A stretch of DNA of 64,000 nt from Gambelia wislizenii (Eukaryota > Chordata > Lepidosauria > Squamata > Crotaphytidae), in contig JAUMIR010000005.1 in assembly GCA_030847615.1 (NCBI GenBank), positions 112,931,116 to 112,995,115 of the forward strand. The letters are read 5' to 3'. Shown here piece by piece: positions 21,939 to 54,363 of the stretch. The first letter of the stretch is position 1. Each line of letters starts with the position of its first letter. The position numbers and the translations under genes were made by a program. The notes beneath the pieces were generated by a model, which was not told where the DNA came from, did not search any database, and saw only the letters and a list, made by a program, of their open reading frames with translations.

Positions 21939-22188
21939 TCTTTTAGTATTCCTTTTTTTTTCCTTCCTATTTTATTCCTTTCATTCTCTCTACCTTCCTC
22001 TTCTCCATTCAGCCTCTTCACTTCATGCTCACTTTACTTCAAATTAGTTCATTCGTTGTTTCCCATTAAGATTAACCCATAATTTCACTTTCCAAAATTA
22101 TATTGTCTTTCTAAGGCGAGACTTCTTTGGATCAACCTCCCCTTTTTTCCCTCCTTTATATTAGGTTGTTGCAGGTATTAGGTTCTTT

Positions 22189-23352
22189 TTAAATAAGTAA
22201 TCCCCCTTCAACCCATTTTCCCCAAATTTCCTGTAAATATGATTTTATTTCCTTCCATTCTGCTTCAAAGTTCTCTAAATTGTTTTCTTTTATGACCTGG
22301 GTAATTTTATCTAAATAAATCAGTTCTACTATCTTAAGGTACCATTCATCTATTGATGGTATACTTTCTTTTTTCCAATGCCTTGCGAAAACTATTCTTG
22401 CTGCCAAAATTAAATTGAATAGTATTCTCTGTTGGGGTTTGGTAACCTCCTCATCTATTATACATAATAAATAACATTCTGGGCACATCTGTAATTGGAT
22501 TTTTAAGATTTTCTCTATTTCTTTATGTATTATAGACCAGTATTTGTATGTTACTTTACATGACCACCAACAGTGATAAAAAGTACCAACCTCTTCTTTA
22601 CATTTCCAACATTTATTTTCATTGTGTTTATATATTCGTGCTAACTTATCGGGTGTTAAATACCACCTGTAAATCATCTTCCAGCAATTTTCCTTCAGAT
22701 CTTGTGAAGCTGTTAGCTTCATGGTTTTATTCCACAGTTTTTCCCATGCTTCCATCATTATTGGATGTTTAATGTTTTGTGCCCATTTTATCATGGGCTC
22801 CTTGATTGTTTCCTCCTCACAGTCCCACTCTAATAATTCTTTGTGGATCCTAGACAAATCTTTCTGCCTTTCCGAGGTCAGTATTTCTTCCATCATTGAG
22901 TTCTTATTCTTATTACCGTATAATTTGATGTCTAATTTTAATTTTTCCCATATTTGTCTATATAACCACCAATGACAAATTATGTGTTGTTCTTTTAGTT
23001 GATCTTGAGTTTTTATTGTTAATTGATTTTTCTTCCAATCTATAAGGTCTTGATATTTTAACCATTTCACACCTGGAATCTGCTCTCTTCTATAAAAGGC
23101 TTCCTGGGGCGATATCCATTTCGGGGTGTTAGACACTATTCTGGCCTTATATTTTTTCCACACCCTTAGTAGAGATCTTCTTATACAGTCGTCATTTATC
23201 TCCTTGTTAACTATGTCCTTATTAAACCACAAATAGGCGTGCCACCCGTATCTCAAATCTTCTCCTTCAATTACTAATATGTCTTCCTTGTCAAGTTTTA
23301 TCCAACTTTTAATCCATTCTAAACAGCAAGCATGGAAATATAATTCGGCCAT
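22189..23352 (-). CDS. L1 ORF2 C-terminal segment (uninterrupted)
   Basis: 387 uninterrupted codons of L1 ORF2 downstream of RT, including the cysteine motif CWKCKEEVGTFYHCWWSCK (C-x2-C ... H ... C) typical of the L1 C-terminal zinc-knuckle-like region. The reading frame ends EGGLLI before the 3' UTR. It cannot make a working protein on its own, because the RT half lies inverted next door. The intact frame suggests a fairly recent insertion. Confidence 0.8.
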   Translation of the reverse strand: MAELYFHACCLEWIKSWIKLDKEDILVIEGEDLRYGWHAYLWFNKDIVNKEINDDCIRRSLLRVWKKYKARIVSNTPKWISPQEAFYRREQIPGVKWLKYQDLIDWKKNQLTIKTQDQLKEQHIICHWWLYRQIWEKLKLDIKLYGNKNKNSMMEEILTSERQKDLSRIHKELLEWDCEEETIKEPMIKWAQNIKHPIMMEAWEKLWNKTMKLTASQDLKENCWKMIYRWYLTPDKLARIYKHNENKCWKCKEEVGTFYHCWWSCKVTYKYWSIIHKEIEKILKIQLQMCPECYLLCIIDEEVTKPQQRILFNLILAARIVFARHWKKESIPSIDEWYLKIVELIYLDKITQVIKENNLENFEAEWKEIKSYLQEIWGKWVEGGLLI

Positions 23353-24582
23353 AAAAAGAGGGAAATTAGGTAAAACACCCGGGCTGGACGGATTATCTAT
23401 GGCTTATTATAAGGCTTTAGAACATCAAATAATCATCCCATTTCAAACATTATTAAATAAGATAAAAGACAAAGGCATGCCAACTTCTTGGAAACAAGCT
23501 CAAATTAGTTTAATACATAAGGAAGGAAGAGACCATCATGATGTAGCCAATTATAGACCTATATCTTTGTTAAACCAAGATTACAAGATATTTACAGATA
23601 TACTAGCACATACATTAAAGTCTGTGTTAACAAGTTGGATAAAGGAAGAGCAGAATGGGTTTCTGCCGAATAGACATATTAAAGAGAATACGAGGACCTT
23701 ACTGAACGCCATAGAATATTATAGAAAACATCCTGATAAAAAGGCCACAGTGATTTTTTTTTGATATTGAGAAAGCGTTTGATAGTGTGAGTTGGCCCCT
23801 GATAATTAAGATCATAGAAAAAAATAAATTGTGGAATGGAATTCACCAAATGGGTCAAAGCCATATACTCAGCTCAAAATGCCACGATAATCATTAATGG
23901 AGAAAACACCAAAAAAAATTGACATATCAAGGGGAACTAGACAAGGCTGCCTGATCTCTCCATTATTATTTATTTTGGTGATGGAATTATTGATTAATAA
24001 CATTAAAAACTCACAAATCAAAGGAATAAAAATCAAGGGAAGGGAGATTAAAATAAGAGCCTATGCAGATGACGTGATGTTAATTATCGATAACCCTGTA
24101 GAAAAGATGGCAGAAATGGTTAAATTATTGAATGAATTCGCAATTATTTCAGGGTTGAAAATAAATAAGAATAAAACAGCGATGCTGGCTTTCAATTTAA
24201 CAAAAACGGAAAAAGAGTAGATTACAGAGATGTCGGGATTTATCTGGGAAAAGAAAATAAAATATTTGGGAATTTCCATCACAAAAAATAATAGCGATTT
24301 AATGAGAAATAATTACCAGAAATTATGGAAAAATATCAAGGAAGATCTGCAGAAATGGTCAGGATTGAAATTAACCCTTTTAGGGAGAATATCAATAATA
24401 AAGATGAAGGTGCTTCCGAAAATGCTCTTCTTCTTCCAGACAATTCCCATTATTAATAATGACAGTATTATATATGAATGGCAAAAAGAAATAACTAGGT
24501 TTATATGGCAGGGAAAAAAGCCAAGAATAAAATTAAAGAACTTACAAGATGTAAAGAGTAGAGGAGGTTTAGGATTACCTAA
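23345..24582 (+). pseudogene. L1 ORF2 reverse transcriptase segment (inverted half)
   Basis: On the plus strand: KTPGLDGLSMAYYK, then ISLIHKEGRDHHDVANYRPI, QNGFLPNRHIKENTRTLLN, then after a frame change at about 23764 DIEKAFDSVSWPL, then RGTRQGCLISPLLFILVMEL, the active site RAYADDVMLII and the thumb to GGLGLPNL. There are two frame breaks, near 23764 and 23890, and a stop near 24218. This is the half inverted by twin priming. Confidence 0.88.
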
Positions 24583-24597
24583 TCTTTTAGTATTCCT

Positions 24598-25298
24598 GAC
24601 CATGGGATCACCCCCAGTATTTCCTTGAATTTATTGAAATCAGCTCTCCTGAAGTCAAGAATGTGTGTCTGACTCTGCCTGGCTTCTCCTTTCCATTGTA
24701 TAACAAACTCCAGGAGAACATGTTCACTCTCACCTAAAGATCCCACCACTTGCACCCCATTAACAAGGTCATCTCTGTTGGTTAGGATCAGATCTAAAAT
24801 AGCTGACCCCCTTGTTGCCTCTTCCACCTTTTGGACCATGAAATTGTCTTCCAGGCAAGTAAGGAATTTGCTAGACCTTGAAGTTTTGGTTGAGTTAGAT
24901 TTCCAGCAAATATCAGGATAGTTGAAGTCTCTCCTTTCTCTGTGTGTGGTCATCTGTTCTAGAAAGGCATCATCCAATTCCTCCATCTGACTTGGGTGTC
25001 TGTAGTAGAGTCCAACAATACCATCCCTGTTGTTTCCCTCCCTTTTCATTTTTATCCAGATGCACTCCACCTGGCTTCCAGTATTGATGTCATGGATCTC
25101 TTCACTGGTATAAATATATCTGACATATAATGCTATTCCTCCTCCTTTCCTGTTTGGCCTGTTTCTCTTATAAAGGTTATGCCCCTCTATTCCTACATTC
25201 CAATCATGTGATGCATCCCACCAGGTTTCAGTAATGCCTATTATATCATATTTGTTTTGTAGTGCTAGGAGTTCAAGTTCATCTTGCTTATTTCCCAT
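24598..25298 (-). pseudogene. CR1 ORF2, apurinic-like endonuclease domain
   Basis: The frame starts at an ATG at 25298, though CR1 ORF2 normally starts slightly upstream. It shows the EN blocks YDIIGITETWWD (catalytic E), GGGIALYVR, IWIKMK, VGLYYRHPS, ILDLILTNRDD and an end block ESEHVLLEFVI. The canonical GDFN catalytic Asp/Asn block reads RRDFNYPDI here: the metal-binding D and the N are kept but G is changed. The frame runs into the L1 at ILKD, and its natural continuation is at 21938. Nicking the target DNA would have been its role. Confidence 0.85.
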
Positions 25299-25491
25299 GC
25301 TCTGTGCATTACTGTAGAGACATCTAAGACCATGTGTTCCCTTTACTTGCTGCCTGTGACAGTTATTTTATTTTATTTTTGCCTCCCACTGTTGGGTCCT
25401 TGTGCTGTTTGCCTTGTTCCCTCTAGGACCATTTGACTATTTTCTCCAACCCTTTTGCCTTCCAGAATACTAACTCGCTCCCCCATATGAC

Positions 25492-26465
25492 TCAGTTTAA
25501 AGCCCTCCTGATCAAATTCTTGAGACTGTAGGCAAAAACGTTTCTGCCAACTGTCGTGAGATGTACCCCATCTCTTGCCAGAAGTCCCCCCTCATGGAAG
25601 TGCAGCCCGTGGTCCAAGAATCCAAATTGTTCTTGGTGACACCATCTATGGAGCCAGTTGTTTACATCGGCTATTTTCCTCTCCCTTCCTGGACCATGCC
25701 CTTCAACTGGCAGAACTGACGAGATGACAACCTGTGCATCCATTTCTTTCAGCTTCCTCCCTAGAGCCTCATAATCTCTTCTGATCTTCGGAAAGCTGTG
25801 CCTTGCAGTATCATTGGTTTGATCATGGATCAAAAGGAAGGAGTAATGATCTATAGGCTTGACAAATCTTGTCAGCCTCTCTGTCACATCACAGATCTTT
25901 GCTCCAGGGAGACAACACACCTCCCGAGACATCTTGTTAGGCCCACAAACCACTGCTTCTGTACCCCACAGCAAGGAGTCCCCCCTACCACACACCTCCC
26001 CCAAAGCTTCACAGGTGCTGTCCCTTGCAGTGGTACTCTCAAGGTCCCCTGGTCTGCCCCTGAACTCTATCCATGCTGTTCTTCCTCATTGTCCTTGATA
26101 AGGGAGAGGGCTTTAAATTGATTCTGTAGCTGCAAGCTGCTTGAAGAATCCCTGGATATTCTTGTTTTGTGTGTGACATTCCTCCAGCTATCTACCTCTT
26201 GTGTCTATGAAGTGACCCTCTCCTCCCCAGCCAGTTCCTCTGTGCGGTCCCCATCCAAGACTGTTCATTCTGTTCTGTCCAGGAAAACCTCTTGCTTACA
26301 AATATGTTAAAGTGTAGCTACCCGTGTCTCCAGCTGCTGGACTTTCTCCTCCAAGAGGGCTACCAACTTGCACTTGGTGCATGTGAAGTTCCCCACATCT
26401 GTAGACAAGAAGACAAACACCCCACAAGTGTTGCAGGTGACTGCAGCAGTCCCCTCAGTGTCCAT
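25492..26465 (-). pseudogene. CR1 ORF1: zinc-finger plus SGNH esterase
   Basis: The minus-strand ATG at 26465 opens a short N-terminal frame with CNTCGVFVF...FTCTKCK, a C-x2-C / C-x2-C zinc finger, followed by a leucine-rich LVALLEEKVQQLE coiled-coil-like run. A stop follows ATL, and there are several breaks over the next 400 bp. The C-terminal frame (25492-26004) carries the SGNH-type esterase: TNDTARHSFPKIRRDYEALG (Asn block) and DGVHLTTVGRNVFA (Asp/His block). The glycine usually preceding TND is replaced (HDQTND), and the serine block is lost in the broken region. Esterase-bearing ORF1 is known in CR1 LINEs. This copy is inactive. Confidence 0.82.
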
Positions 26466-31064: not shown

Positions 31065-31910
31065 TTACATCTCATTCAGTTTGTCAAGCCATCCTTCAAC
31101 CTCCAGAGCCTCTTTCCTCTTCCAATGAGCAGCGATTTTAAGTCTGGCTGCCATTACTACATATAATAGGATCCTCCAGACTTCTTTTTCAACATGCCTC
31201 TCTAGCCCCGAAGTTATATTTAAAAGATATAACTTTGGGTCCATAGTAAAATTTACGTTTATCATCTTCTGTATTATTCTATGTACTCTTTCCCAGAATT
31301 TTTCAATAATTGGGCACCCCCACCACATGTGGTACAATGACCCTATTTCCTTTTCACACCTCCAGCACTTCTTGTTCTCTAACTTATGGATCTTACTCAG
31401 CCTTGCTGGTGTGAGGTACCACCTATTAGCGATCTTAAAGTAATTTTCTTTCAGATCTTGGCTTGCCGTAAATCGGTTTGTCTTACTCCAAGCATTTTCC
31501 CATTCCTCTAGACTAATTACTTTGCCAATATCTTTCGCCCATTTTATCATTTAATCTTTTATCAGTTCGTTTTCTAATTCTCTCTGCAGTAGTAAGTTAT
31601 AGAATTTTGTTATTTTACCTTAATCCGTAGCCCAGACTATTTTATCAATTTCGTTCTGTTCTTTCACAAAGCCATATTGAGTTTTATCTTCTTTAAATTT
31701 CTCCTCTAGCTGAAGATATCTAAACCAGTTTATCTTAAGCCCCTGTCTCTGTAGTTCCTCTCTCATAAGTATCCTACACTCTTTTTCATTTACCCACTTT
31801 ATCAATTCATTATATTTGGTCCATTCTTCCTCTCTTGTCCATCTGGCTTGAAATGCCTCAACCGGAGACAACCACATTGGAATGCCAGTATAGAATTTCT
31901 GTTTTACATT
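31065..31910 (-). pseudogene. L1 ORF2, C-terminal part (distal to Ngaro insertion)
   Basis: It continues the ORF2 frame from the other side of the inserted element (KIWD | NVKQKFYTGIPMWLSP, the junction codons using the shared ATCC). It covers the post-RT region and the cysteine motif CWRCEKEIGSLYHMWWGC (C-x2-C...H...C). Stops after VWATD (31620) and LIKD (31551) break the frame. The homologous region of the L1 at 22189-23352 is uninterrupted. Confidence 0.88.
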
Positions 31911-32092
31911 ATCCGGCTCCTCGCCTTGCGGCGGAGCCGCTTGGGCAGAGGAGCCGCCTTTGCCGCCGTTTGCGGCTCAGGAGACCCTGTTTTGATCGCA
32001 GGCGGCGTCGCCTGCGACAGAGGTGAGGGGCGGGGCCGGAGGATATAAAAGGCCTCCCGTCCCTCGCCTCCTCCTTCTTTGCTGGCGATCGA
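31911..32092 (+). repeat. Ngaro split direct repeat A1 (5' copy)
   Basis: 182 bp, GC-rich, starting ATCCGGCTCCTCGCCTTGCG and identical by eye to 38093-38274. It can fold: ggctcctcgcc pairs with ggcggagcc, and gcaggcg (31998-32004) pairs exactly with cgcctgc (32009-32015). It carries a GC box (ggggcggggcc) and a TATA box, so it probably contains the promoter. The two copies diverge right after ggcgatcga. Confidence 0.9.
32028..32050 (+). promoter_or_regulatory. GC box plus TATA box promoter in A1
   Basis: The run ggggcggggcc (an Sp1-type GC box, about 32028-32037) is followed by TATAAAA at 32044-32050. The spacing fits a Pol II core promoter with transcription starting near 32075-32080. The same pair occurs in A2 (TATAAAA at 38226-38232). 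Starting inside A1 would lose upstream bases from the transcript. Those are present again in A2, which is how split repeats allow regeneration. Confidence 0.65.
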
Positions 32093-33179
32093 TCGAGCGA
32101 GCGAGCTGCTTTGCTTTGGCAATCTGCCTTTTTTCCTCTGGCGATTGAGCGAGCGGGAGCATTCAGCGGTGGCTGGATTAGTTGTGGCCGCTCGGACGAT
32201 CGTGCCACGGAGCCCATTTGGGCAGCGGTTTGATTAGGGGTGCTTGGGGGGTGGGGGGGGAGTTGGGTGGTCGGGGTCTGCGTTGGGACCATTTGGGGGT
32301 CTGTAAGCCACAGGGCCACACCTGGAGTGCAGGTTTGGGCAGGGGGTCGAGCGTCCCGGGGGGGAGCTTTGGCTCTCCTGTCAGGCAGTAGTAACTTCTG
32401 GGTTTGGACTTGCATCAGGGAATACTTTAAACCCCCCCCCTCATCCATATTAATTCTTACCTTCGTTGTAATCTCTTGTAGCCTAAGTTTATTGTGCAAG
32501 TTGAGCAGGCTGCCAACAGAAACCTCCTCCCTCTAGTTGTTTGTAGTCATTGTAAATTTCACATAGGGGCATTCTGTTGGCGGTTTTTTCTGGCGGGCCA
32601 CCAGGGGGCCGGGATCCTTGCTGTTTTGGAGAGCCTCTATAGTAGGCTATGAGGCGGCCATTTTATGGGAGGCATTTAGACTAGTGTGTTGGCAGCCATT
32701 TTGTGAGGCTTTTTATAGAATTCAAAGGTGGCCATTTTGAGGCCATTTTGAGGGTTCTCTTTGAAGTTTATTTAACAGTTCTTTAGCCATTTCCTGAGGG
32801 GTACTAAGTCTAGTGTAGTGGCGGCCATCTTGTTGGGGTTTTGTATAATTAAAGGCAGCCATTTTGTGGGAACTCTTTTGGAATTTTATGAACAGTTGGC
32901 TTACTTAGTGGTGGATCAAATGGTAGTACATTAGCAACAATAATATTAATAATTCTTAATAATAATAATAAAAATTACGTCAGCTTTTGCTGGACAGTTG
33001 TTAGATTATACACTGTTTTTCTAGAATTGCATTGAAACTCATAGTAATATCAGCATCAATAATAATAATAATAATAATAATAATAATTGTTAACGGCAGT
33101 TGTTTGCCAATTGGGTTCAGGTCATACCGTTTCTTTGAGTTATATTGAGGGGGTAGTTTCCTTTTGTATCATTGTTGCA
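32093..33179 (+). other. Ngaro leader (5' UTR)
   Basis: About 1.1 kb between A1 and the Gag ATG. It has a short gagcga repeat (32091-32105), a G-rich part (32225-32370), the YY1-like cluster described separately and AAT-type microsatellites (32935-32975 and 33058-33087). No open frame with recognisable content starts here. Short upstream ATGs exist, so leaky scanning, re-initiation or splicing may be needed. Confidence 0.7.
32653..32870 (+). promoter_or_regulatory. Cluster of YY1-like motifs in Ngaro leader
   Basis: The core GCCATTTT or GCCATCTT, usually preceded by ggcg/ggca/ggtg, recurs with CCAT near 32658, 32696, 32732, 32743, 32787, 32825 and 32859, all in one orientation. This is the complement of the YY1 consensus AAGATGGCGGC. 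YY1 sites are known to direct transcription in human L1 leaders. A similar role here is an inference from motif density. At 32787 the downstream bases differ (gccatttcc). Confidence 0.55.
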
Positions 33180-34544
33180 ATGGCCTCCAGGAAAGGGAAA
33201 GGCGGTCAGAAAGGCAAGGGGAGGGCTACCAAGCCACAACAACCCGCCTTACCGGCGCCTGATATTGAGTCATCCAGTGATGATGAAGATCAGTTGCCTT
33301 GGAATGCGATTATGGCACGGATTCAACGTTTAGAGAAGTTGCAGGGTGTTCAACAAGAAGAGGTTGTGGTTGCTCACTCTCAAGGTAAAAAAAGAAAGAT
33401 TGCTGATGAGATTCTTTCCCGTCTAGATGCTCTGGAGCGTAACATCAATCCCGACGGGGCTACAGGGTCCTCCCATGTCGAGGATACTTCCAGCAGTGTA
33501 CCTCCTTCATGTAATCCGGTGGATCAGCCAGCTAATGACAACACCATGCCTGGAACGCCAGGTGAGCCAGTTAAGCCAACATTTAATCCTTATGCAAGTA
33601 CATCTTGGCCCTGGGGGACATGGGACAGTGCATCGAGTGCCCAGGCTGTGCTGGGGACCTGGCCAGGGCAGCCGACCGTTAATTGGATGCCAGCTCAATG
33701 GTCTCCTTGGTCGCCTTATGGGTTAGGTACAATGGTTCCCCCTTTTGGGATGGCGCAGGGGTCACCCAGCACTTCTCAGGGCACAGGATATGATTCCATA
33801 GCTTATTCAGCAATTCCCTTCGGAGAAATGTCCCTTCCTTTGGGTGATCATCTGCTTCAATCCACTAGGGATAAAATAGTTAAAGGCGAATATGTGGATC
33901 TTTTTTCTTTGCTTTATAGGGAAGTGGAGAAAAAAGATAGGGAGGAAATGGATGAGAAGGAGAAAGAAAAATTGAAAAAGAGGAAAGTGGAGAGGAACTG
34001 GACCAATTGGCTTTCCGGTTTCCTCATTTATGCGGGTGTGGTGGTTAAGGCACACCCTCATCGAGCAGCCTCACTGTTCCAGTATCTTGATATAATTCAC
34101 AGGGCTTATGGTGATTTCGCAGGTCCTGCCTGGCTTCTTTATGATGAGGCTTTTAGGATGAGGGCGGCAATTTATCCTTCTTTGAGGTGGGACATGATGC
34201 ATCCTCAGTTATGGATGCAGCTTATGACCCCGGCCCGCCCAATACAGGGGGAGAGGACACACAGTGGACACTTAGTCAGGTCATCCAACACCACGGGGCA
34301 GCGAGCCACAGCGGGCACGGCTGCGGCTGTGAGGCAGGTATGTTGGGAGTTTAGTTCACATGGCTTTTGTGCTAGGAAGCCCTGCAAGTATAGTCATGAG
34401 TGTTCCATTTGTAGTGGTGGGCATTCCTTTCGGAACTGCCCCAGGGGAAAACAGGCTACCCGAGGTGGTAGGCCCAATCCAGGAGGTAGGGGCGGAGCAT
34501 CTACCGCTCATGCTCAAAAAGGGGCCCAGCCCAATCAACAATGA
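33180..34544 (+). CDS. gag: Ngaro Gag-like nucleic-acid-binding protein
   Basis: 454 codons from the ATG at 33180 (context caATGGcc, MASRKGKGG). Upstream codons are open but contain no ATG. The N-terminus is basic (residues 1-20), then acidic/polar with a possible short coiled coil. A Pro/Ser/Trp-rich middle (about 130-210) is followed by a highly charged helix (EKKDREEMDEKEKEKLKKRK, about 263-282) and a conserved globular part. At the C-terminus CWEFSSHGFCARKPCKYSH is a C-x8-C-x4-C-x3-H finger, directly followed by CSICSGGHSFRNC, a C-x2-C-x3-H-x4-C knuckle. This pair suits binding of the element's RNA in a Gag particle. It overlaps the RT frame by 185 bases. A consensus-like splice donor, CAG|GTGAGC, lies at 33561/33562. 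Confidence 0.88.
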   Translation: MASRKGKGGQKGKGRATKPQQPALPAPDIESSSDDEDQLPWNAIMARIQRLEKLQGVQQEEVVVAHSQGKKRKIADEILSRLDALERNINPDGATGSSHVEDTSSSVPPSCNPVDQPANDNTMPGTPGEPVKPTFNPYASTSWPWGTWDSASSAQAVLGTWPGQPTVNWMPAQWSPWSPYGLGTMVPPFGMAQGSPSTSQGTGYDSIAYSAIPFGEMSLPLGDHLLQSTRDKIVKGEYVDLFSLLYREVEKKDREEMDEKEKEKLKKRKVERNWTNWLSGFLIYAGVVVKAHPHRAASLFQYLDIIHRAYGDFAGPAWLLYDEAFRMRAAIYPSLRWDMMHPQLWMQLMTPARPIQGERTHSGHLVRSSNTTGQRATAGTAAAVRQVCWEFSSHGFCARKPCKYSHECSICSGGHSFRNCPRGKQATRGGRPNPGGRGGASTAHAQKGAQPNQQ

Positions 34545-36117
34545 TGTTTTACAGCGTTGGTTGAAGATATATCCAGATAGGCATGCAGCCGAGTACCTTC
34601 GTAACGGTTTTCAGTTTGGGTTTAGGATTCCATTTCAAGGGGTTCGACGGCCATTTTGGGCCCGCAATTTGAAATCTGTTTATGGTTTGGAACAAGTTGT
34701 TAGGGATAAGATTACAAAAGAGGTAAGTGAGGGTCGAGTTTTAGGTCCCTTTTCGAGTCCTCCGGTACCCAACCTGCGGGTATCTCCCCTGGGGGTTGTC
34801 CCTAAGAAGGCACCAGGGGAATTTAGGCTCATTCATCATTTATCATACCCCAAAGGGGATTCGGTGAATGATGCTATTCCTCATGAGCTGTGTTCGGTTA
34901 GGTATACTTCTTTTGACGCCGCGGTTCGGGTAGTTCGCCTTCAGGGTTGGGGGGCTGAGCTGGCAAAGTGTGATATAAAATCCGCTTTTCGACTTTTGCC
35001 AGTTCATCCGGATGACTTTGAGTTATTAGGTTTCCACTTTGAAGGGCAGTTTTATATGGATCGAGCTCTCCCTATGGGATGTTCGGTTTCGTGCAACGCT
35101 TTTGAAACCTTTAGTACCTTCTTGGAGTGGGCGTTGAAGACTAGAACTGGTTTATGCAGTGTGGTTCACTATTTGGATGATTTTTTAATGATTGGACCTT
35201 ATCAATCTGGCCAGTGTGCATATTTGCTGCACCAGTTTGAGGCTTTAGCGGGGGAGCTTGGGGTGCCTCTTGCACCTGAAAAAACAGAAGGCCCTGCTCA
35301 AGTTTTGACCTTTTTAGGTGTGGAAATCGACACCATTAATCAACAATGTAGACTGGCTGAAGCTAAAGTTGCTGATTTAAGAGATAGGGTATCCCAGTTT
35401 CTTCTTATGCGTAAAGCTACTTTACGAGAGTTTCAGGTCCTTATAGGTCATTTGAACTTTGCGTGTAAAGTGGTGGCGCCCGGGAGGGCTTTTCTTCGTC
35501 GGTTGTGCGACGCTATTAAAGGGGTGCGGCAACCATATTTCTTAATCCGTATAACAAAGGATATACGGGCAGATTTGCTCGTTTGGCACCAGTTTCTGGA
35601 CCAATTTAATGGCGTCTCCTTTTGGCGGGAGGATCGGAAGCTCAAAAGTAATTTTCAGATAGCATCTGATGCAGCTGGTTCTACTGGGTTCGGGGTTTAT
35701 TTTGGTGGACGGTGGTGTGCGAGTAAGTGGCCTTCTGATTGGGCGGCTTCAGATATTGTGGCCGATTTAACATTTCTAGAATTCTTTCCCATTCTTGTTG
35801 CGGTCACTATTTGGGCGGATGAATTGGGAAATTCAACAGTGCACTTTTGGTGCGATAATATGGCCACCGTCCAGGTGATAAACTCCCTTACCTCAAAGTC
35901 CCCTCGGGTGATGGTGCTCGTTAGGGCCTTCACGTTACAGTGTTTGAAGTTTAACATTCTATTTGTTGCCCGGCATGTGGCGGGCGTTGACAATGGTATT
36001 GCTGACGCTCTTTCCCGCATGCAGATGGAGCGATTCAGAGAGCTGGCCCCCGACGCAGCACCCGAGGGCGACCCAATGCCGGTAAGCCTGTGGAGGCTTG
36101 GGAGCCAGAACTTGTAA
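34360..36117 (+). CDS. pol: Ngaro reverse transcriptase / RNase H
   Basis: 585 codons, in the +1 frame relative to Gag and overlapping its zinc-finger end. The ATG at 34360 or the later one at 34510 could start it, or it may be reached by frameshift or splicing. RT blocks: SPLGVVPKKAPGEFRLIHHL (about 146-166), the catalytic Asp in KCDIKSAFRLLPV (about 204-216), MGCSVSCNAFETF, and the YLDDFLMIG active site (YLDD at residues 271-274). The RNase H fold follows, with Asp in IASDAAGSTGFGVYF (D437), Glu in FLEFFPI, Asp in FWCDNMATV and the final ARHVAGVDNGIADALSR. All expected metal-binding acids are present. There is no protease or integrase, as usual for this order. It makes cDNA from the element's RNA. 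Confidence 0.93.
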   Translation: MAFVLGSPASIVMSVPFVVVGIPFGTAPGENRLPEVVGPIQEVGAEHLPLMLKKGPSPINNDVLQRWLKIYPDRHAAEYLRNGFQFGFRIPFQGVRRPFWARNLKSVYGLEQVVRDKITKEVSEGRVLGPFSSPPVPNLRVSPLGVVPKKAPGEFRLIHHLSYPKGDSVNDAIPHELCSVRYTSFDAAVRVVRLQGWGAELAKCDIKSAFRLLPVHPDDFELLGFHFEGQFYMDRALPMGCSVSCNAFETFSTFLEWALKTRTGLCSVVHYLDDFLMIGPYQSGQCAYLLHQFEALAGELGVPLAPEKTEGPAQVLTFLGVEIDTINQQCRLAEAKVADLRDRVSQFLLMRKATLREFQVLIGHLNFACKVVAPGRAFLRRLCDAIKGVRQPYFLIRITKDIRADLLVWHQFLDQFNGVSFWREDRKLKSNFQIASDAAGSTGFGVYFGGRWCASKWPSDWAASDIVADLTFLEFFPILVAVTIWADELGNSTVHFWCDNMATVQVINSLTSKSPRVMVLVRAFTLQCLKFNILFVARHVAGVDNGIADALSRMQMERFRELAPDAAPEGDPMPVSLWRLGSQNL

Positions 36118-36128
36118 GGGCTTTAGGT

Positions 36129-37004
36129 ATGTCTATGGCTCCCAGCACGTTGAAGGGATACACCAGGGCGTTGCGTGAATTTTTTCAGTTTAGGGAGCAG
36201 TTAGGTGTTAGTCACAGTGTTCCAGTACCTTTTGATCAGCTTTTTCAGTTCTGCTTGACACTGTATCATAAGGGCTTGGCCCCACAATCTATTAAGGTTC
36301 GATTGTCAGCCATTGCCTTTTGGCTCAAAGCCCAGGGGGCTCCTGACACTACTGGGGATTTCCGCATCCGAAAGGCTTTGGAAGGTTGGTCGAGAGAACG
36401 TGGGCGTAGTAAGGATAGTAGAGTTCCAATTTCGCCAGCTATTTTGAAGGGGTTAGCCTCAACTTGGGTTGGCATTTGTAGGTCACCTTATGAGGTGCTG
36501 CTTTTCCACGCTGCTGCTTTGACAGCCTTTTTTGGTGCTTTGCGCATCAGTGAGCTAGTGCAGGCATCCAAGACGGACACTTCACACAGAGCGTTGGAGT
36601 TTAGAGATGTTATCATGGAGAGGTATAGGGTCACGCTGATTTTGCGCTTTTCTAAGACGGATCAGCATGGGAAGGGTAAGCAGTGCTCTTTACTGCCTTG
36701 TAGTGACCTTGAGTTATGCCCAGTTCGGGCGTTACAACAGTTTTTTGTAGTTCGGGGGCCACGGGCAGGTCCACTTTTTGTTCATGAGGATTTTTCCCCC
36801 CTTACTAAATATCAATTTTGGAATGTGACGTCTAGAGCGCTAAGTAAGCTGGGTCTTCAGGGGGTTCGCTTTGCAACCCATTCTTTTCGCATAGGAGCTG
36901 CTTCCACAGCTGCGGCTATGGGCATGACATCTGCAAGGATTCAAGGTATTGGCCGGTGGAGGTCCTCCTCTTACCGGCGTTATGTGCGACCGCTCACTTA
37001 CTAA
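36129..37004 (+). CDS. Ngaro tyrosine recombinase
   Basis: 291 codons if started at the first ATG (36129). The frame is open a little further left but only from a GTG, and the recombinase core-binding domain (APSTLKGYTRALREFFQF) begins right after this ATG. The start lies 11 bases past the RT stop, in the -1 frame. The catalytic domain shows Arg in GALRISELV (R139), H-x-x-R in THSFRIGAAST (H251, R254) and a C-terminal tyrosine in SSYRRYVR (probably Y285), so the R-H-R-Y set is complete. It would join circular element DNA to the genome by strand exchange with no target duplication, matching the observed insertion site. A donor-like AAGG|GTAAGC lies at 36675/36676. Confidence 0.93.
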   Translation: MSMAPSTLKGYTRALREFFQFREQLGVSHSVPVPFDQLFQFCLTLYHKGLAPQSIKVRLSAIAFWLKAQGAPDTTGDFRIRKALEGWSRERGRSKDSRVPISPAILKGLASTWVGICRSPYEVLLFHAAALTAFFGALRISELVQASKTDTSHRALEFRDVIMERYRVTLILRFSKTDQHGKGKQCSLLPCSDLELCPVRALQQFFVVRGPRAGPLFVHEDFSPLTKYQFWNVTSRALSKLGLQGVRFATHSFRIGAASTAAAMGMTSARIQGIGRWRSSSYRRYVRPLTY

Positions 37005-37011
37005 CTGTTGT

Positions 37012-37031
37012 ATTCTCCTTTTGTTTTGCAG
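37012..37031 (+). promoter_or_regulatory. Splice-acceptor-like site before the hydrolase frame
   Basis: A pyrimidine-rich tract and terminal AG (ttctccttttgttttgcag, ending at 37031) make a near-consensus 3' splice site just after the recombinase stop. The exon would start at 37032, two bases before a codon of the hydrolase frame, so a phase-1 donor is needed. CAG|GTGAGC (33561/33562, Gag frame) and AAGG|GTAAGC (36675/36676, recombinase frame) are both phase 1. Confidence 0.5.
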
Positions 37032-37633
37032 ATTCTAGTTCGTTGTTCGTGAGGCTGCGGGTGCTGATTTGTGGCCACAGTATGGTGTACTGGGCGGCCC
37101 GGCAGGCCCGGATGAGTCACTATGGGGCTCACTTATGTTTGGGGAATGGGGCAACAGTTGAGTGGGTGGGGAAAAGGGGTTTACGTTGGCGTGGCCTGTT
37201 GCCACTGCTTTTTGGGGAGCGCCAAGGGCCTCCGCCAGATGTTCTTATCCTGCATTTGGGGGGGAATGACTTAGGGTTATTGAAGGGGAAAGCTTTGGTC
37301 CTGCAGGCACTACACGATATACGGGTAATCAGGTCGCGTTGGCCTGGAGTTACCGTAGTGTGGTCAGCAATTCTGCAACGGAGGCAATGGAGGGGTGAGG
37401 GTGATCCCCGTGCTCTTGAAAAAGCCCGTAAAGGGGCTAACAGGGAAATTAAGAACGCAATGCACAAGGGTTTGGGTTACTATTTGCCTCACCCTGATAT
37501 TGTGTCCAGAAAGCCCGAGCTCTACAGAGCTGACGGGGTACACCTTTCGGACGCTGGAAATTTGATCTTTTTGAAGGATCTTCAGCAGGGGTTGAGGGAC
37601 CTATTGGACGAGCTGGTGGGGGAAAGGGACTAA
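37032..37633 (+). CDS. Ngaro SGNH/GDSL-type hydrolase domain
   Basis: The frame is open from 36848 and ends TAA at 37633, but no in-frame ATG precedes the catalytic serine block. I therefore start the feature at the proposed exon boundary. Block I reads RVLICGHSMVYWAA (Ser codon 37079-37081), a block II-like GNGATVEW follows, block III is ILHLGGNDLG (Asn codon 37265-37267), and block V is YRADGVHLSDAGN (Asp 37532, His 37541). All four catalytic positions of an SGNH hydrolase are therefore present. About 200 residues fits one such domain. The substrate is unknown; an acyl-ester hydrolase acting on lipid or a modified protein is the family expectation. It overlaps the recombinase frame if read from upstream. 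ORF1 of CR1 in this window carries a related fold. Confidence 0.82.
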
Positions 37634-37658
37634 GCGGACGCTTGCCCCTTTCTGTGGT

Positions 37659-38096
37659 GGAAAAGGGGGAGGTGTTTATTCGGTGGGCACCTTGGCACCA
37701 ATTTTTGGTGAAGGTAGGGTCTCTGGAAGGGCCACTTCAGCCCGTGGGGCCTGAGTGGACAGAAGGAGACCCGCCTTGAGGTTGGCCTAAAGGATAATCC
37801 TTCACCTCAATCCGTGGGGCTTGGGTGAAGGCCTTTTGGGTTCACCTTCCAGACGCGGGTCGGCTGGTGAGCAACCCCAGTCAATTGGGGTTCCTCTCCA
37901 GGACCCAGGTGTTCGCCAGGGAAGGCTGAGGGGTGTGGTCTAGGATAGACCTACCGCCTCAGCTGGTCCCTCACCAGGTTGCCTCCCCCTGCTGAAGATT
38001 TTAGAGGGAATTAAATAGGTTGAATTCAATAAAAGCATTTTATTTCACCCCATGTTATGTGTGTGGTCTCTTTATTCCGCAATCGACCGGCAATCC
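37659..38096 (+). repeat. Ngaro split direct repeat B1
   Basis: 438 bp starting ggaaaagggggaggtg just after the last ORF stop, identical by eye to B2 (offset exactly 780 bp). It contains a poly(A) signal AATAAA at 38028-38033 followed by a T-rich stretch. It ends gaccggcaatcc, overlapping the first four bases of A2. The junction reads CCGG-CAAT-CCGG, a small inverted repeat at the presumed recombination point. Confidence 0.9.
38028..38033 (+). terminator. Poly(A) signal in B1 (copy in B2 at 38808)
   Basis: AATAAA within tgaattcaataaaagcattt, with a T/GT-rich stretch (tgttatgtgtgtggtctc) about 20 bases beyond. The identical signal at 38808-38813 in B2 is the likely end of a full-length transcript. 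Use of the B1 signal would give a shorter RNA that lacks A2 and B2. Confidence 0.6.
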
Positions 38097-38274
38097 GGCT
38101 CCTCGCCTTGCGGCGGAGCCGCTTGGGCAGAGGAGCCGCCTTTGCCGCCGTTTGCGGCTCAGGAGACCCTGTTTTGATCGCAGGCGGCGTCGCCTGCGAC
38201 AGAGGTGAGGGGCGGGGCCGGAGGATATAAAAGGCCTCCCGTCCCTCGCCTCCTCCTTCTTTGCTGGCGATCGA
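38093..38274 (+). repeat. Ngaro split direct repeat A2 (internal copy)
   Basis: 182 bp identical by eye to A1, including the GC box, the TATA box (38226-38232) and both hairpins. It lies between B1 and B2 and supplies a template for rebuilding the 5' end of the cDNA. Confidence 0.9.
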
Positions 38275-38438
38275 CCCACCCTCCCGCCGCTTGAATAGTG
38301 TGGTAATGGTCGCTTAGGGGCCGGGTAGGAATTTTTTCCCCCCTTTTCTCGGGGGGTTTTTCGCCTACCCCATACTAGGATAGCGGCATTTGGGAAATTG
38401 GCTTGGGTGGTGTCTAAATAGGTTACTCCCAGCAAGGC
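38275..38438 (+). other. 164-bp spacer between A2 and B2
   Basis: GC-rich sequence (cccaccctcccgccgc ... agcaaggc) with a C-run/G-run hairpin (ttttttccccccttttctcggggggttttt, roughly 38331-38360). It is not present after A1. No coding content. Confidence 0.7.
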
Positions 38439-38876
38439 GGAAAAGGGGGAGGTGTTTATTCGGTGGGCACCTTGGCACCAATTTTTGGTGAAGGTAGGGT
38501 CTCTGGAAGGGCCACTTCAGCCCGTGGGGCCTGAGTGGACAGAAGGAGACCCGCCTTGAGGTTGGCCTAAAGGATAATCCTTCACCTCAATCCGTGGGGC
38601 TTGGGTGAAGGCCTTTTGGGTTCACCTTCCAGACGCGGGTCGGCTGGTGAGCAACCCCAGTCAATTGGGGTTCCTCTCCAGGACCCAGGTGTTCGCCAGG
38701 GAAGGCTGAGGGGTGTGGTCTAGGATAGACCTACCGCCTCAGCTGGTCCCTCACCAGGTTGCCTCCCCCTGCTGAAGATTTTAGAGGGAATTAAATAGGT
38801 TGAATTCAATAAAAGCATTTTATTTCACCCCATGTTATGTGTGTGGTCTCTTTATTCCGCAATCGACCGGCAATCC
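38439..38876 (+). repeat. Ngaro split direct repeat B2 (3' terminus)
   Basis: 438 bp identical by eye to B1, ending ggcaatcc where L1 sequence resumes. The final ATCC (38873-38876) equals the first four bases of A1. Confidence 0.9.
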
Positions 38877-41670
38877 CAAATCTTCAACAAGGTGCCTCTC
38901 ACTGTATAGTTTCTAAATTCCTTATCTATTTTTGCTTTCCTGTACCACACATGAGTGAATACCAAATTTGATGTTACAGCATTACAAATTTCGGAGTCTC
39001 GGATTTTCTAGCTTAATCCAATTAACAATCCATTTTAATCCACACGCCATGTAATACATTCTAAGATTAGGAAGGGCCATCCCGCCCCTCTCTTTAGCAT
39101 CTATTAGAGTTGACCATTTCAACCTTGGCTTTTGGCCATTCCAAATAAAGTTCTTTAAATCCTTTGTCCATTCTACAAAGGGTTTCTCATTGTTCAAAAT
39201 AATTAAATTTTGGAACAAAAAGATCATCCTCAGTAAAATGTTCATTTTGACCGTGGCAATCTTCCCCAGTATGGATAAGTTTAATTTCTGCCACTTTTCC
39301 AAATCTTCCCTTACCTTCTTCCAAGCTCTTTTATAGTTGTTTTCATATAGTTCCCTATTTCTTTTACTGATCCATACTCCTAAATACTTTGCTTTACTTT
39401 CAACTTTACACCCAGAACTGCCTCCTAATTGCCTTTCTTCTTCCTTTGTTAAATTCAGCAGAATTATAACTGTTTCCTCCTTATTAAGCTTAAAGCCTGA
39501 TAGTAGGCCGAATTTACTTATTATTTCTAATAATTTCCTCATGTTATCTAAAGATTCCTGAAGTATTAATAAATCATCAGCGTAGGCTAGTGTCTTATAT
39601 TCTTGTCCTTTAAATTTTAAACCCGATATTGTCTTATCTTCTCTAATTTGCTTATTTAATAATTCCATGGATAATATAAACAAAATAGGTGAGAGTGGGC
39701 ATCCCTGCCGTGTTCCTTTCTGAATTTTAATCTCCTGTGATCTCTCTCCATTCACCACTATTTGTGCCTTTTGATTATGATATATATGTCCAATACTCTG
39801 TAAGAACTCCTTTCCTACTCCTATCTCTTCTAATACTATTTTCATAAATGGCCAGCGTAGGTTATTGAAAGCTTTCTCTGCATCTGCTAATATTAATGCA
39901 GCTTTCTTATCATTATTTTTCCCAAAATATTCCAGAGCATTCAAAGTCATCCTGATATTATACGACACTGTCCAGCCTGGAAGAAAACCATTATGGTCCG
40001 GATATATAAATTCAACCAGTATTCTTTTAAGTCTATTTGCTAGAATTGATGCATAGATCTTATAATCAATATTTAATAGTAATATGGGTCAGTAATTTTT
40101 AATCTCTGTTAGGTCTCTCCCTTCCTTTGGAATCAAAACTATTTCTGCTTTTTTTTCATGTTTCGGGGATACCTTCCTCTCTTATCTTGTTGAGCATCAC
40201 ATGTAGGTATGTCACAATATCTTCCTCAAATGCTTTATAATATTCAGCAGTAAGTCTGTCAGGTCCCAGGGATTTCCCATTTTTTAACTCCTTTATAGCC
40301 TCTGCTATTTCCTGCGTTGTTATTGGTTTTTCTTGATTCTTCCTCTGTTCCATTGGGATAGTTCCTATGTTACTCATAGAGATATAATTTTTAGTTTCTG
40401 CTTCACTCTCAGCTTCATTTGTTTCCGAATATAGTTTTGAATAGTACTGACTGAATTTCCCCATTATCTCTTTTTGTGATGTGTATATTACCTGATCTTC
40501 TTCATCCTTAATTCTAGTTATAATTTTCTTCCCTGTTTCCTTCTTGAGCTTGTACGTTAGCCACCTTCCGACTTTATTCGCATTAGTGAAATAATATTGT
40601 TTGGCCTTTTTTAATTTATAACCTATACCTTCTATTAACTCTTGATTTATTTCTGCCTGTATCACTTTTATCTCCCTCAAGATCTTTGCGTTTCTAGGAT
40701 TCCATCTTAACATGTTTTCTTTTTCCATAAGGGCCATTGTTAACCTTTCTTTCTTTTTTTTCTTTGTTTCTGCACTTCAGCTCCTCTCTGTAGGAACCTT
40801 CCCCTCATAGTTGCTTTAAAGGCATCCCATATGGATTTACTCAGAATATCCTCTGTGTTGTTTATCTCGAAAAACGTTTTTATCACAGCCTTCATCTTTT
40901 GTACAAATAACTCATCTTTCAGTAATTTTTCCTTAAATCTCCAAGTAAAGGCTTTCTTCTGAATATGTAATGTCAATCTTAAAGGATTATGGTCCGATAT
41001 TAGGTTGCACATCAACATCTCTTATTTTCATGCTAAGTTCTTTGGCTACCCAGAACATGTCTATTCTAGACCAAGTGTGATGCACCTCTGAATAAAAAGT
41101 ATATCCTTTCTCGTTTCCTTTTTTATGTATCCATGCATCTATTAAGTTGTGTTCTTCTAAGATCTGACAAATGAATGGTAAATTATCATGGTCTCTTTTA
41201 CTTTTGCTTTTCTCTCCTGCTGATCTATCTTTCTGCTTATCAAGCACCCCATTAAAGTCACCAGTTATGATAACATTACCCGTTTCTATTTTCCCTAATT
41301 CCGAATTCAAGGATTTATAAAATTGATTTTTTTTCTCTAGCGGGGCGTAAATTGCTATCACATTTATTATCTGGTGTACTAACATCAGTTCAATTCCCAC
41401 GAAATGCCCATTCTCATCTCTCATAATCTCCTTTGCGTCATATCTATTGTTTACATAGACTACTACTTCTTTTTTCTTCTGTGAGGAAGAAGAGTGAAAT
41501 AATTGGCCTAATCTTTTATTCTCCAAATATTTTTTATCTTGTTCTCTTATCCTTGTCTCCTGAATTGTTATTATGTCTGCTTTCTGTTTCTCTAAAAGAT
41601 AGAATACTCTTTTCCTCTTTTCTGGTGTGTTTAATCCTTTAACATTCCATGTTATAATTGAAAATGCCAT
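38877..41670 (-). pseudogene. L1 ORF2, endonuclease and reverse transcriptase (proximal to Ngaro insertion)
   Basis: Starts at the ATG at 41670 with AFSIITWNVKGLN, two bases after the ORF1 stop. Endonuclease blocks include QETRI (catalytic E), GDFNGVLD (D, N) and SRIDMFWV. RT blocks are KSLGPDRLTAEYYKAF, DAEKAFNNLRWPF, KGTRQGCPLSPILFI and TLAYADDLLIL (active site YADD). Frame breaks lie near 40990-41018, 40738, 39970-40155 and 38985. At the left it runs into the Ngaro-type element at GTLLKIWD and continues in frame at 31910. Its damage is moderate, so it predates the pristine element inside it. Confidence 0.88.
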
Positions 41671-53593: not shown

Positions 53594-54363
53594 TTAAGGT
53601 TGCCCAGAATTCCTTAGGTTCGGGTGAATCAGTTCATTTGCATACTGTCCAAAAACCCTCAAGTGCTTGAGGTTTGGTGCTCTACCATACAATAGATAAT
53701 ATGGGGTCTGGTTGACGCTAGACGTCCACGGTCTATTTAAATGGTAAACAGCCATCTTCACTGCCTCCCCCCACAGCCCAACTGGGGCTATGCATCTTCC
53801 ATCATGCACTCCATCATGCACTTCAACATCCCAGTTTTCCCTTCTGCAAGCCCATCCTCCCCTGGAGATGCTGGGTTTGTGGTCTTGTGTCTAATGCCTC
53901 TCCTACGCATCCAGGTCTGCAGACTGTTGGATAAGAATTCCCCTCCCCTATCCGTCACTAGACTTGAAACCTTATGAGAAGGAAATTCATGTTCCACCAC
54001 ATTCACCAACTCACAGATCCTGTCTGCAGCCTGATTTTTTTCGTTTAGTAAGTATACGTAGGTGTACATAGTGTGTCTGTCCACTATCACAAATAAATAG
54101 TGATTACCTCCTTCAGTGGGTTTATAGGGGCCTAGACAATCAGCATAGACAACTTCAAAGGGTCTCTTGGTGGCACATTGGGTCTTTTTGGCAATAGGGA
54201 AAGCCTTCACCTTAACTTTCCTGCACACTGCACATTCTAAGAACCTTGGGCAGTGTTTCATGCTTAAACCAGGGCACATTTTTGCTAGCTGCTTTAACTC
54301 TTTGTAACTAGCATGTACCATTAGCCTGCAGTTGTAATGTACACACTGATCATGTAGGGACAT
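53594..54363 (-). pseudogene. Copia integrase
   Basis: It starts with a zinc-binding pre-integrase piece (VHYNCRLMVHASYKELKQLA ... CAVCRKVK). The catalytic core follows: first Asp in VVYADCLGPYKP, second Asp in SLVTDRGGEFLS, and Glu in GEDGLAEGK, where the usual NGLAER has become DGLAEG. The frame then shifts near 53800, and the downstream core continues as WGEAVKMAVYHLNRPW and YYLLYGRAPNLKHLRVFG. Its role was inserting element cDNA with a 5-bp stagger, matching the flanks. Confidence 0.88.

What the first reader, a model, noticed from the sequence alone, without database searches (positions are those of the whole stretch)
31911..38876. Complete, apparently intact Ngaro-type tyrosine-recombinase retrotransposon
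All parts are visible: split direct repeats, promoter, Gag with paired zinc fingers, RT with YLDD plus RNase H acids, recombinase with R, H-x-x-R and Y, and SGNH hydrolase with Ser/Asn/Asp/His blocks. None of the four frames has a stop or shift. Nearly every other element in the window is broken. A possibly active member of this order in an amniote is the strongest candidate here for something new.
Basis: partly seen in the sequence, partly recalled or inferred. Interest (0 to 1): 0.9.

Follow-up and report, generated by a model that had tools for sequence, protein, structure and literature searches.

The report
Lizard Ngaro element with spliced esterase
This stretch of what is likely a lizard genome is a complete mobile element of the known Ngaro type, and its fourth gene, a predicted esterase, is likely made by splicing its message onto the start of the element's Gag gene, which my limited paper searches did not find described for such elements.

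Summary
In detail: 31911-38876 is a full-length Ngaro-type retrotransposon with identical split direct repeats and four open frames (Gag, RT/RNase H, tyrosine recombinase, SGNH hydrolase). Being in an amniote is not new: relatives are annotated in geckos, anoles, lacertids, a snake and others, and Xenopus Ngaro elements have the same four genes. The family is recent here, with many near-identical copies. Two results go further. (1) Empty sites in 20 L1 copies show exact insertion: the element, cut at its own junction CCGGCAA|TCCGG, sits between A/T bases with no target duplication and no loss. (2) The SGNH frame has no ATG before its catalytic serine. A donor in gag (33562) and a branch point, pyrimidine tract and acceptor at the recombinase stop (37031) are phase-matched and kept in nearly all other copies examined (donor 33 of 35, acceptor 35 of 36), while the recombinase-SGNH reading frame is not kept. 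Fifteen of 43 homologous SGNH proteins, from five squamate species, carry Gag N-terminal sequence in front (4 of 43 at stricter settings). So SGNH is likely made as a spliced Gag-SGNH fusion; RNA reads were not available. About half of the copies (15 of 28) lack the internal A2-B2 unit.

The parts
31912..38873 (+). Inserted element, 6962 bp, TCCGG...CCGGCAA (31911-38876 with the shared ATCC on both sides)
   Evidence: Empty L1 sites read ACATTATCCCAAATC; termini constant in other copies
31911..32092 (+). Repeat A1, with TATA box at 32044
   Evidence: 182/182 identical to A2; TATAAA by pattern; promoter role inferred
33180..34544 (+). Gag-like ORF, 454 aa, zinc-finger-like C-terminus, helical core
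   Evidence: Open frame; 8 homologs; core model pLDDT 79.5; dN/dS 0.07-0.29; zinc fingers by eye
33562..37031 (+). Predicted intron: donor CAG|GTGAGC in gag, acceptor with TACTAAC branch and CAG|AT at the recombinase stop
   Evidence: Gag-SGNH homologs
34474..36117 (+). Reverse transcriptase/RNase H ORF (frame open from before 34360; no conserved ATG known)
   Evidence: RVT_1 1.8e-10; YLDD and RNase H acids; tree
36090..37004 (+). Tyrosine recombinase ORF (open from GTG 36090; first ATG 36129)
   Evidence: Phage_integrase 2.3e-6; R36543, K36654, H36879, R36888, W36957, Y36972 codons
37032..37633 (+). SGNH hydrolase coding exon (frame open from 36956)
   Evidence: Lipase_GDSL_2 7.3e-10; nearest solved structure 4c1b, ORF1-encoded protein, E 0.0011; S37079, N37265, D37532, H37541 codons
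37659..38096 (+). Repeat B1, polyadenylation-like AATAAA at 38028
   Evidence: 438/438 identical to B2
38085..38102 (+). Internal B1|A2 junction GACCGGCAA|TCCGGCTCC, the sequence expected at the closed junction of a circular form
   Evidence: Sequence; matches the two outer ends of the copies; circle itself inferred
38093..38274 (+). Repeat A2, TATA box at 38226
38275..38438 (+). Unique spacer between A2 and B2
   Evidence: absent from the 15 short-form copies
38439..38876 (+). Repeat B2, AATAAA at 38808
31065..31910 (-). Left flank: interrupted L1 ORF2 (host of the insertion)
   Evidence: ORFs; joined flanks; 39 other L1 places
38877..41670 (-). Right flank: remaining part of the same L1
   Evidence: ORFs; empty-site alignment

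Best explanation
This is a complete Ngaro-type tyrosine-recombinase retrotransposon with identical split direct repeats, and its fourth gene, an SGNH-hydrolase domain, is predicted to be made from a spliced mRNA that joins it to the first 127 residues of Gag. Life cycle, with status. Transcription would start at the TATA box near the end of A1 and end at an AATAAA in B2 (inferred from motifs). The unspliced RNA would serve Gag, RT/RNase H and recombinase and act as genome (inferred); the spliced RNA would give Gag-N/SGNH, whose Gag part could carry the hydrolase into the Gag complex (inferred). The RNA lacks the outer ends of A1 and B2, and internal B1-A2 would restore them during cDNA synthesis (published model for these elements, seen in outline in PMC6681497), closing a circle at CCGGCAA|TCCGG (inferred). 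The recombinase would then insert the circle by crossover at an A/T dinucleotide (inferred). The exact result, no duplication and no loss, is shown by empty sites.
For: Identity: repeats, Pfam domains and no methyltransferase, protease or DDE integrase match, catalytic residues, RT tree in which the row sits with four Anolis rows at 98/96. Splicing: no ATG before the catalytic serine; acceptor score 14.3, above the best of 40 shuffles (14.2), and a phase-matched CAG|GTGAGC donor. In 20 older copies the highest-scoring donor of the 160 nt lies at the same base in 20 of 20; in the aligned part only 1 of 129 eight-base windows has at most one change, and it is the donor core. The acceptor is the best of the 300 nt in 19 of 20, and the frequent changes in its tract are to pyrimidines. 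In the 18 copies where the recombinase tail and stop were read, exon 2 begins 27 nt (5 copies), 28 nt (12) or 29 nt (1) after the stop, so the recombinase-SGNH frame is not kept. 15 of 43 SGNH homologs carry Gag N-terminal sequence in front. Insertion: 20 of 20 empty L1 sites, joined frame in L009, A or T at 43 of 44 central positions against 58% A+T in flanks.
Against: No RNA was seen; the Gag-SGNH proteins are database gene models whose transcript support I could not check. The count of 15 rests on a lenient comparison (E 0.01, no composition correction); with default correction and E 1e-5 it is 4 of 43. Higher-scoring single sites exist elsewhere in the element: donor 34723 (11.6) and acceptor 33919 (15.0), and the best donor of shuffles reaches 12.6. 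Exceptions: L022 reads GTGTGG, c12 GTGGGT, and c04 has no homologous acceptor. One model joins recombinase to SGNH (P0156) and one RT to SGNH (P0092). The RT tree has no DIRS or PAT rows. Gag's capsid role is unproven: no structural match. The circle was not observed.
Confidence: 0.8

Rival explanations
1. The element is an ordinary four-gene Ngaro in which SGNH is translated from the unspliced RNA by ribosomal frameshifting from the recombinase frame or by reinitiation.
For: Frames overlap, as reported for Xenopus Ngaro-like elements (PMC9210276). In the window the SGNH frame is open upstream into the recombinase ORF. One partial gecko gene model joins recombinase to SGNH (P0156), and similarity of two homologs to the window frame begins upstream of exon 2 (P0142 at residue 3, P0148 at residue 8).
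Against: No ATG before the catalytic serine. The stop-to-exon distance is 27, 28 or 29 nt in 18 copies, so the relative frame changes. Similarity to the window SGNH frame begins at residues 25-36, at or just after exon 2, in 29 of 43 homologs (12 begin later). Conserved splice signals would be unexplained.
Confidence: 0.08
2. The splice pair is real at DNA and gene-model level but is a by-product, such as exonisation or an inhibitory splice, and the Gag-SGNH protein has no part in transposition.
For: Only gene models were seen. Spliced RNA would lack RT and recombinase (from coordinates).
Against: SGNH is under strong constraint (dN/dS 0.03-0.17 in the 12 comparisons with five or more synonymous changes) and has no other visible start. 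Both splice sites are kept in nearly all copies examined. The same kind of fusion occurs in models of four genera.
Confidence: 0.1
3. It is a PAT-like or DIRS-like element rather than a Ngaro.
For: PAT elements also have split direct repeats, and some derived ones lack the methyltransferase (PMC4157794, passages).
Against: No Dam-type methyltransferase match at E 0.1, no inverted repeat of 20 nt or more at the strict setting, SGNH present as in Xenopus Ngaro-like elements (PMC9210276).
Confidence: 0.02

Closest known systems
Xenopus Ngaro-like elements DIRS-53_XT / DIRS-54_XT (PMC9210276)
   Same: Four ORFs (Gag-like, RT/RH, YR, SGNH) with overlapping frames, A1...B1A2B2 repeats 100% identical in DIRS-53_XT, recent copies
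   Different: A and B lengths differ (236/152 bp there, 182/438 here). No splicing is mentioned in that paper's text (0 occurrences of 'splic'). Xenopus RT relatives here are about 50% identical; which of them are DIRS-53/54 was not checked
Squamate Ngaro-type gene models (RT: Anolis, Eublepharis, Hemicordylus, Rhineura, Erythrolamprus and others; SGNH: Eublepharis, Anolis, Rhineura, Heteronotia, Gekko, Erythrolamprus)
   Same: RT up to 69% identical, named SGNH models 51-67% identical; 15 SGNH models carry Gag N-terminal sequence
   Different: Annotated only as uncharacterized or similar; no whole element was read here from those species
Cafeteria burkhardae Ngaro elements (PMC8547959)
   Same: A1-[ORFs]-B1A2B2, Gag/RT-RH/YR order, insertion into other mobile elements, reduced repeat forms (solo AB)
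   Different: No SGNH mentioned there (0 occurrences); the reduced form found here keeps A-ORFs-B, and solo A-B units could not be searched
ORF1-encoded protein 4c1b (a zebrafish LINE esterase domain; that identity is recalled)
   Same: SGNH-type domain attached to a retrotransposon's ORF1 protein; best solved-structure match (E 0.0011)
   Different: There the domain lies in one ORF of a LINE; here it would be attached by splicing in a tyrosine-recombinase element

Membership tests
Ngaro (DIRS order) | Split direct repeats A1-ORFs-B1-A2-B2, internal repeats downstream of YR | tested here: met
   182/182 and 438/438 identical
Ngaro (DIRS order) | Tyrosine recombinase with R, HxxR and Y | tested here: met
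   Phage_integrase 2.3e-6; residues located
Ngaro (DIRS order) | RT with YxDD and RNase H | tested here: met
   RVT_1 1.8e-10; YLDD and RNase H acids located by motif; no Pfam RNase H match
Ngaro (DIRS order) | No methyltransferase, no aspartic protease, no DDE integrase | tested here: met
   None among Pfam matches to E 0.1 in the four ORFs
Ngaro (DIRS order) | RT grouping with Ngaro rather than DIRS/PAT references | tested here: inconclusive
   Tree holds only the window and 35 of its homologs, no DIRS or PAT row
Ngaro (DIRS order) | Insertion without target-site duplication (expected for the recombinase mechanism) | tested here: met
   20 of 20 empty L1 sites; L009 joined frame
PAT-like | Methyltransferase domain in pol | tested here: not met
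   No Dam-type match at E 0.1
DIRS-like | Inverted terminal repeats plus internal complementary region | tested here: not met
   No inverted repeat of 20 nt or more with seed 12; at seed 8 the longest pairs are 28 nt at 75% and do not join the two ends
SGNH hydrolase | Catalytic Ser, Asn, Asp and His blocks | tested here: met
   Lipase_GDSL_2 7.3e-10; residues located; activity not testable
Retrovirus-like capsid (Gag core) | Capsid fold | tested here: inconclusive

The most novel reading that the evidence does not exclude
Squamate Ngaro retrotransposons use retrovirus-like alternative splicing: one unspliced RNA for Gag, RT and recombinase, and one subgenomic mRNA for a Gag-N/SGNH esterase fusion that rides into the Gag particle. 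Beside this, their recombinase produces a second, A-ORFs-B circle, by joining the two identical B|A junctions of one cDNA circle, so that about half of all insertions are born without the parts needed to replicate again.
Probability: 0.4. Interest if true: 0.75.

Novelty: new variant of a known kind. Interest (0 to 1): 0.58.

Why it matters
How the SGNH domain of vertebrate Ngaro elements is expressed, and what it does, is not explained in the papers I saw. A conserved intron that attaches it to Gag's N-terminus makes a concrete prediction: the enzyme travels with Gag, as an accessory protein might. It would be a case of alternative splicing in the tyrosine-recombinase order, comparable in logic to subgenomic mRNAs of retroviruses. 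The empty-site series defines the integration product of a vertebrate Ngaro to the base, and the near-equal mix of full and reduced insertions in younger and older copies gives a handle on the circle model.

Tried and rejected
Gag as a retroviral capsid: whole-Gag model poor (pLDDT 51.9), core model good (79.5), no convincing match in PDB or viral libraries; the absence does not show a new fold.

A 3-nt overlap crossover (AAT) with heteroduplex resolution: it fits each single site but would need the type of target to predict which junction keeps it; a fixed cut at CAA|TCC explains the sites more simply.

Target-site duplication ATCC in the window: rejected, because other copies have different flanks and no duplication.

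Short form as slow decay by recombination between B1 and B2: not excluded, but the share does not rise with age (5 of 10 youngest, 4 of 7 middle, 6 of 11 older readable; small numbers) and short and full copies lie side by side in the gag tree, some forks weakly supported. Short form via random use of either circle junction: it predicts permuted A-B-A-ORFs-B insertions; none among the 15 other copies with a readable left end. The search for solo A-spacer-B units did not complete.

RT by frameshift at the gag end: the overlap in the +1 frame is nearly invariant, no clear slip site recognised by eye; left open.

RT tree against DIRS, PAT and VIPER: not done, no references fetched.
Full report
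What is there. The element fills 31911-38876. A1 (31911-32092) and A2 (38093-38274) agree in 182 of 182 bases, B1 (37659-38096) and B2 (38439-38876) in 438 of 438. Between A1 and B1 lie Gag, RT/RNase H, tyrosine recombinase and SGNH frames, all open. Pfam supports RT, recombinase and SGNH and finds no methyltransferase, protease or DDE integrase; Gag has no Pfam match. Catalytic residues are in place. The nearest solved structure to SGNH is 4c1b, an ORF1-encoded protein (E 0.0011).

How new it is as an element. The RT search listed 120 of 2032 hits; the best named ones are Anolis, Eublepharis, Hemicordylus and Rhineura at 59-69% identity, followed by a snake, lacertids and frogs. In a tree of the window and 35 named homologs the window sits with four Anolis rows (98/96; a fifth Anolis row lies elsewhere), so the host, which is unnamed here, is likely an iguanian lizard. 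Xenopus Ngaro-like families have the same four genes and repeats, and some copies were called potentially active (PMC9210276; abstract, section 5 part 1, sections 8 and 9 read). Ngaro fossils are reported even in human (PMC9004415, passages). An amniote Ngaro is therefore not new.

Copies. In the host genome (2.47 Gb) a 1001-base gag query gave 41 rows, with 40 scored of 1662 first-look candidates, so counts are lower bounds. Ten rows, the window included, are at 98-100%. I fetched 16 other copies at 90-100%. Six of these 16 also have all four frames open; the others carry stops, shifts or deletions. Against the window, dN/dS is 0.07-0.29 for gag, 0.08-0.28 for RT (three copies had no substitution at all), 0-0.31 for the recombinase and 0-0.31 for SGNH, so all four genes, SGNH included, were kept by selection between insertions. 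RT of L010, L011 and L012 shows no substitution against the window over at most 1545 bases compared (L010 has a 48-base loss and a stop), while their gag differs at 9-10 sites, which suggests mosaic copies. Identical repeats and short gag end branches (0.0007-0.005 in 9 of the 10 youngest, L014 being the exception) point to recent insertion; I give no date because no rate was tested.

Exact insertion. The element interrupts a minus-strand L1. Of 39 other L1 places hit by the left flank I read the site in 20: 20 of 20 have four bases, ATCC in 19 and CTCC in one, between the two flanks. The filled site reads ACATT-ATCCGG...GGCAATCC-CAAATC. Copy L009 lies inside an older Ngaro RT gene, and its joined flanks restore that gene's frame (read by eye). 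In the 16 left ends and 28 right ends read (window included), the element runs from TCCGG to CCGGCAA (only GCAA kept in some older copies), and the flanking base is A or T in 43 of 44 cases, against 58% A+T in the flanks; the central pairs in 16 sites with both ends are AT 7, AA 7, TT 2. The internal B1|A2 junction reads CCGGCAA|TCCGG, so the ends fit a circle opened at that point and crossed into an A/T dinucleotide, with no duplication and no loss. For DIRS1 a crossover between circle junction and identical target bases without duplication is described (PMC3266345, passages). The circle here is inferred.

Two forms. Nine of the 17 copies including the window, and 6 of 11 readable older ones of 12 fetched (L063 unreadable), end after the first B and lack A2-spacer-B2: 15 of 28 in all. 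The share is 5 of 10 in the youngest, 4 of 7 in the middle and 6 of 11 in the older group. Short and full copies lie next to each other in the gag and SGNH trees. Both forms end in A/T targets, with one exception (L071). A short copy cannot restore its RNA's missing ends by the published scheme, so it would be a dead end (inference). Recombination of B1 with B2 in the cDNA circle or soon after insertion fits best; slow decay fits less well, on small numbers. A circle with two equal B|A junctions should also give permuted insertions, and none was seen in the 15 other copies with readable left ends, which speaks against free use of both junctions. The search for solo A-B units, known in Cafeteria Ngaro (PMC8547959, passages and section 11), did not complete.

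Splicing of the fourth gene. The SGNH frame (36956-37633) has no ATG before its catalytic serine: the serine codon is at 37079 and the first ATG at 37082. The recombinase stop lies inside TACTAAC, followed by a pyrimidine tract and CAG ending at 37031. This acceptor scores 14.3 bits, above the best of 40 shuffles (14.2), second in the element to one inside gag (15.0). A CAG|GTGAGC donor at 33562 in gag (11.2, second to 34723 at 11.6; shuffles reach 12.6) is in phase: one base from exon 1 plus AT gives GAT, and the frame runs on into SGNH. Among the 16 closer copies CAG|GTGAG is kept in 14 of 15 readable and the acceptor in 16 of 16. I then fetched both sites in 20 older copies. The best donor of the 160 bases is at the same base in 20 of 20, CAG|GTGAG in 19; the best acceptor of the 300 bases is this one in 19 of 20, c04 having no homologous sequence there. 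In the aligned gag stretch only one of 129 eight-base windows has at most one change in 20 copies, and it starts at 33559, the donor core; the acceptor region as a whole is more conserved, with 19 such windows of 268, so there the test is weaker. The three third-codon positions in the donor core never change, against a mean of 5.2 of 20 elsewhere, though 12 of 49 others also never change, half of them at the poorly covered end. The sixth intron base changes in 12 of 20, in 11 to the consensus T. In the acceptor tract the frequent changes are A to C, T to C and G to T. Exon 2 begins 27 nt after the recombinase stop in 5 copies, 28 in 12 and 29 in one of the 18 in which the recombinase tail and stop were read (c04 and c15 not measurable). 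A fixed frameshift cannot serve all of these; splicing can. Exceptions: L022 (GTGTGG), c12 (GTGGGT), c04.

Independent support. A search with the SGNH frame found 43 proteins. In 15 the window's Gag N-terminus matches in front of SGNH: Eublepharis 8, Anolis sagrei 4, A. carolinensis 1, Heteronotia 1, Gekko kuhli 1 (E 0.01 without composition correction; 4 of 43 at E 1e-5 with correction; Eublepharis Gag matches more of them). Similarity to the window's SGNH frame starts at residues 25-36, at or just after exon 2 (residue 25.3), in 29 of 43, earlier in 2 and later in 12. The Eublepharis model P0141 is 94% identical to Eublepharis Gag (P0006) over residues 97-146 and then becomes SGNH; this point is 9 residues before Gag's SWPWG motif, against 14 in the window's prediction (sequences; counted by eye). 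These are gene models; whether RNA reads support them I could not see. In the paper library one paper holds both Ngaro and SGNH, PMC9210276, with no 'splic' in its text. 51 papers hold Ngaro and 'splic' (40 listed); I read passages on splicing only in PMC4157794, where it concerns other things, and the listed titles name no splicing of such elements. A search for DIRS, spliced, gag and tyrosine recombinase gave 13 papers; passages of PMC5633606 concern a reporter intron. Most subscription papers are not in the library.

Mechanism and certainty. Shown: anatomy, copy structure, exact insertion, conservation of the splice sites, fused database models. Inferred: promoter and polyadenylation use, splicing in this species, packaging of the fusion with Gag, restoration of ends from B1-A2, the circle, and recombinase action. 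Not tested: current mobility and esterase activity.

Noticed in passing
window 34490-34560: The RT frame has no ATG near its conserved KGPSPI start; it overlaps gag in the +1 frame at AAAAAGGGGCCCAGCCCAATC, which is nearly invariant in 16 copies. How RT is translated is open.
   Followed up: partly
window 32093-33179 and copies L009-L024: The 5' untranslated region diverges far faster than the genes (70-98% identity in pieces, while the genes are mostly 94-100% except in L023) and holds length changes; it looks like a fast-evolving control region.
   Followed up: no
L009, L025: A copy close to the window's is inserted inside an older Ngaro RT gene: Ngaro within Ngaro, with the target frame restored when flanks are joined.
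   Followed up: yes
window 20061-26004, minus strand: ORFs resembling a CR1-type LINE: RT pieces and, at 25492-26004, a fragment with an SGNH-like DGVHLT block. Judged by eye only.
   Followed up: no
window 53788-55414, minus strand: Broken ORFs resembling a Copia-type element (CCHC knuckle, integrase core). Judged by eye only.
   Followed up: no
window 5590-7039, 58514-59467: Further broken L1 pieces related to the L1 that holds the element (66-68% identity in blastn).
   Followed up: partly
window 36112-36117: The window's RT ends ...TTG TAA where the 15 other copies readable there have ...TCG TAA: a private change in the last codon.
   Followed up: no
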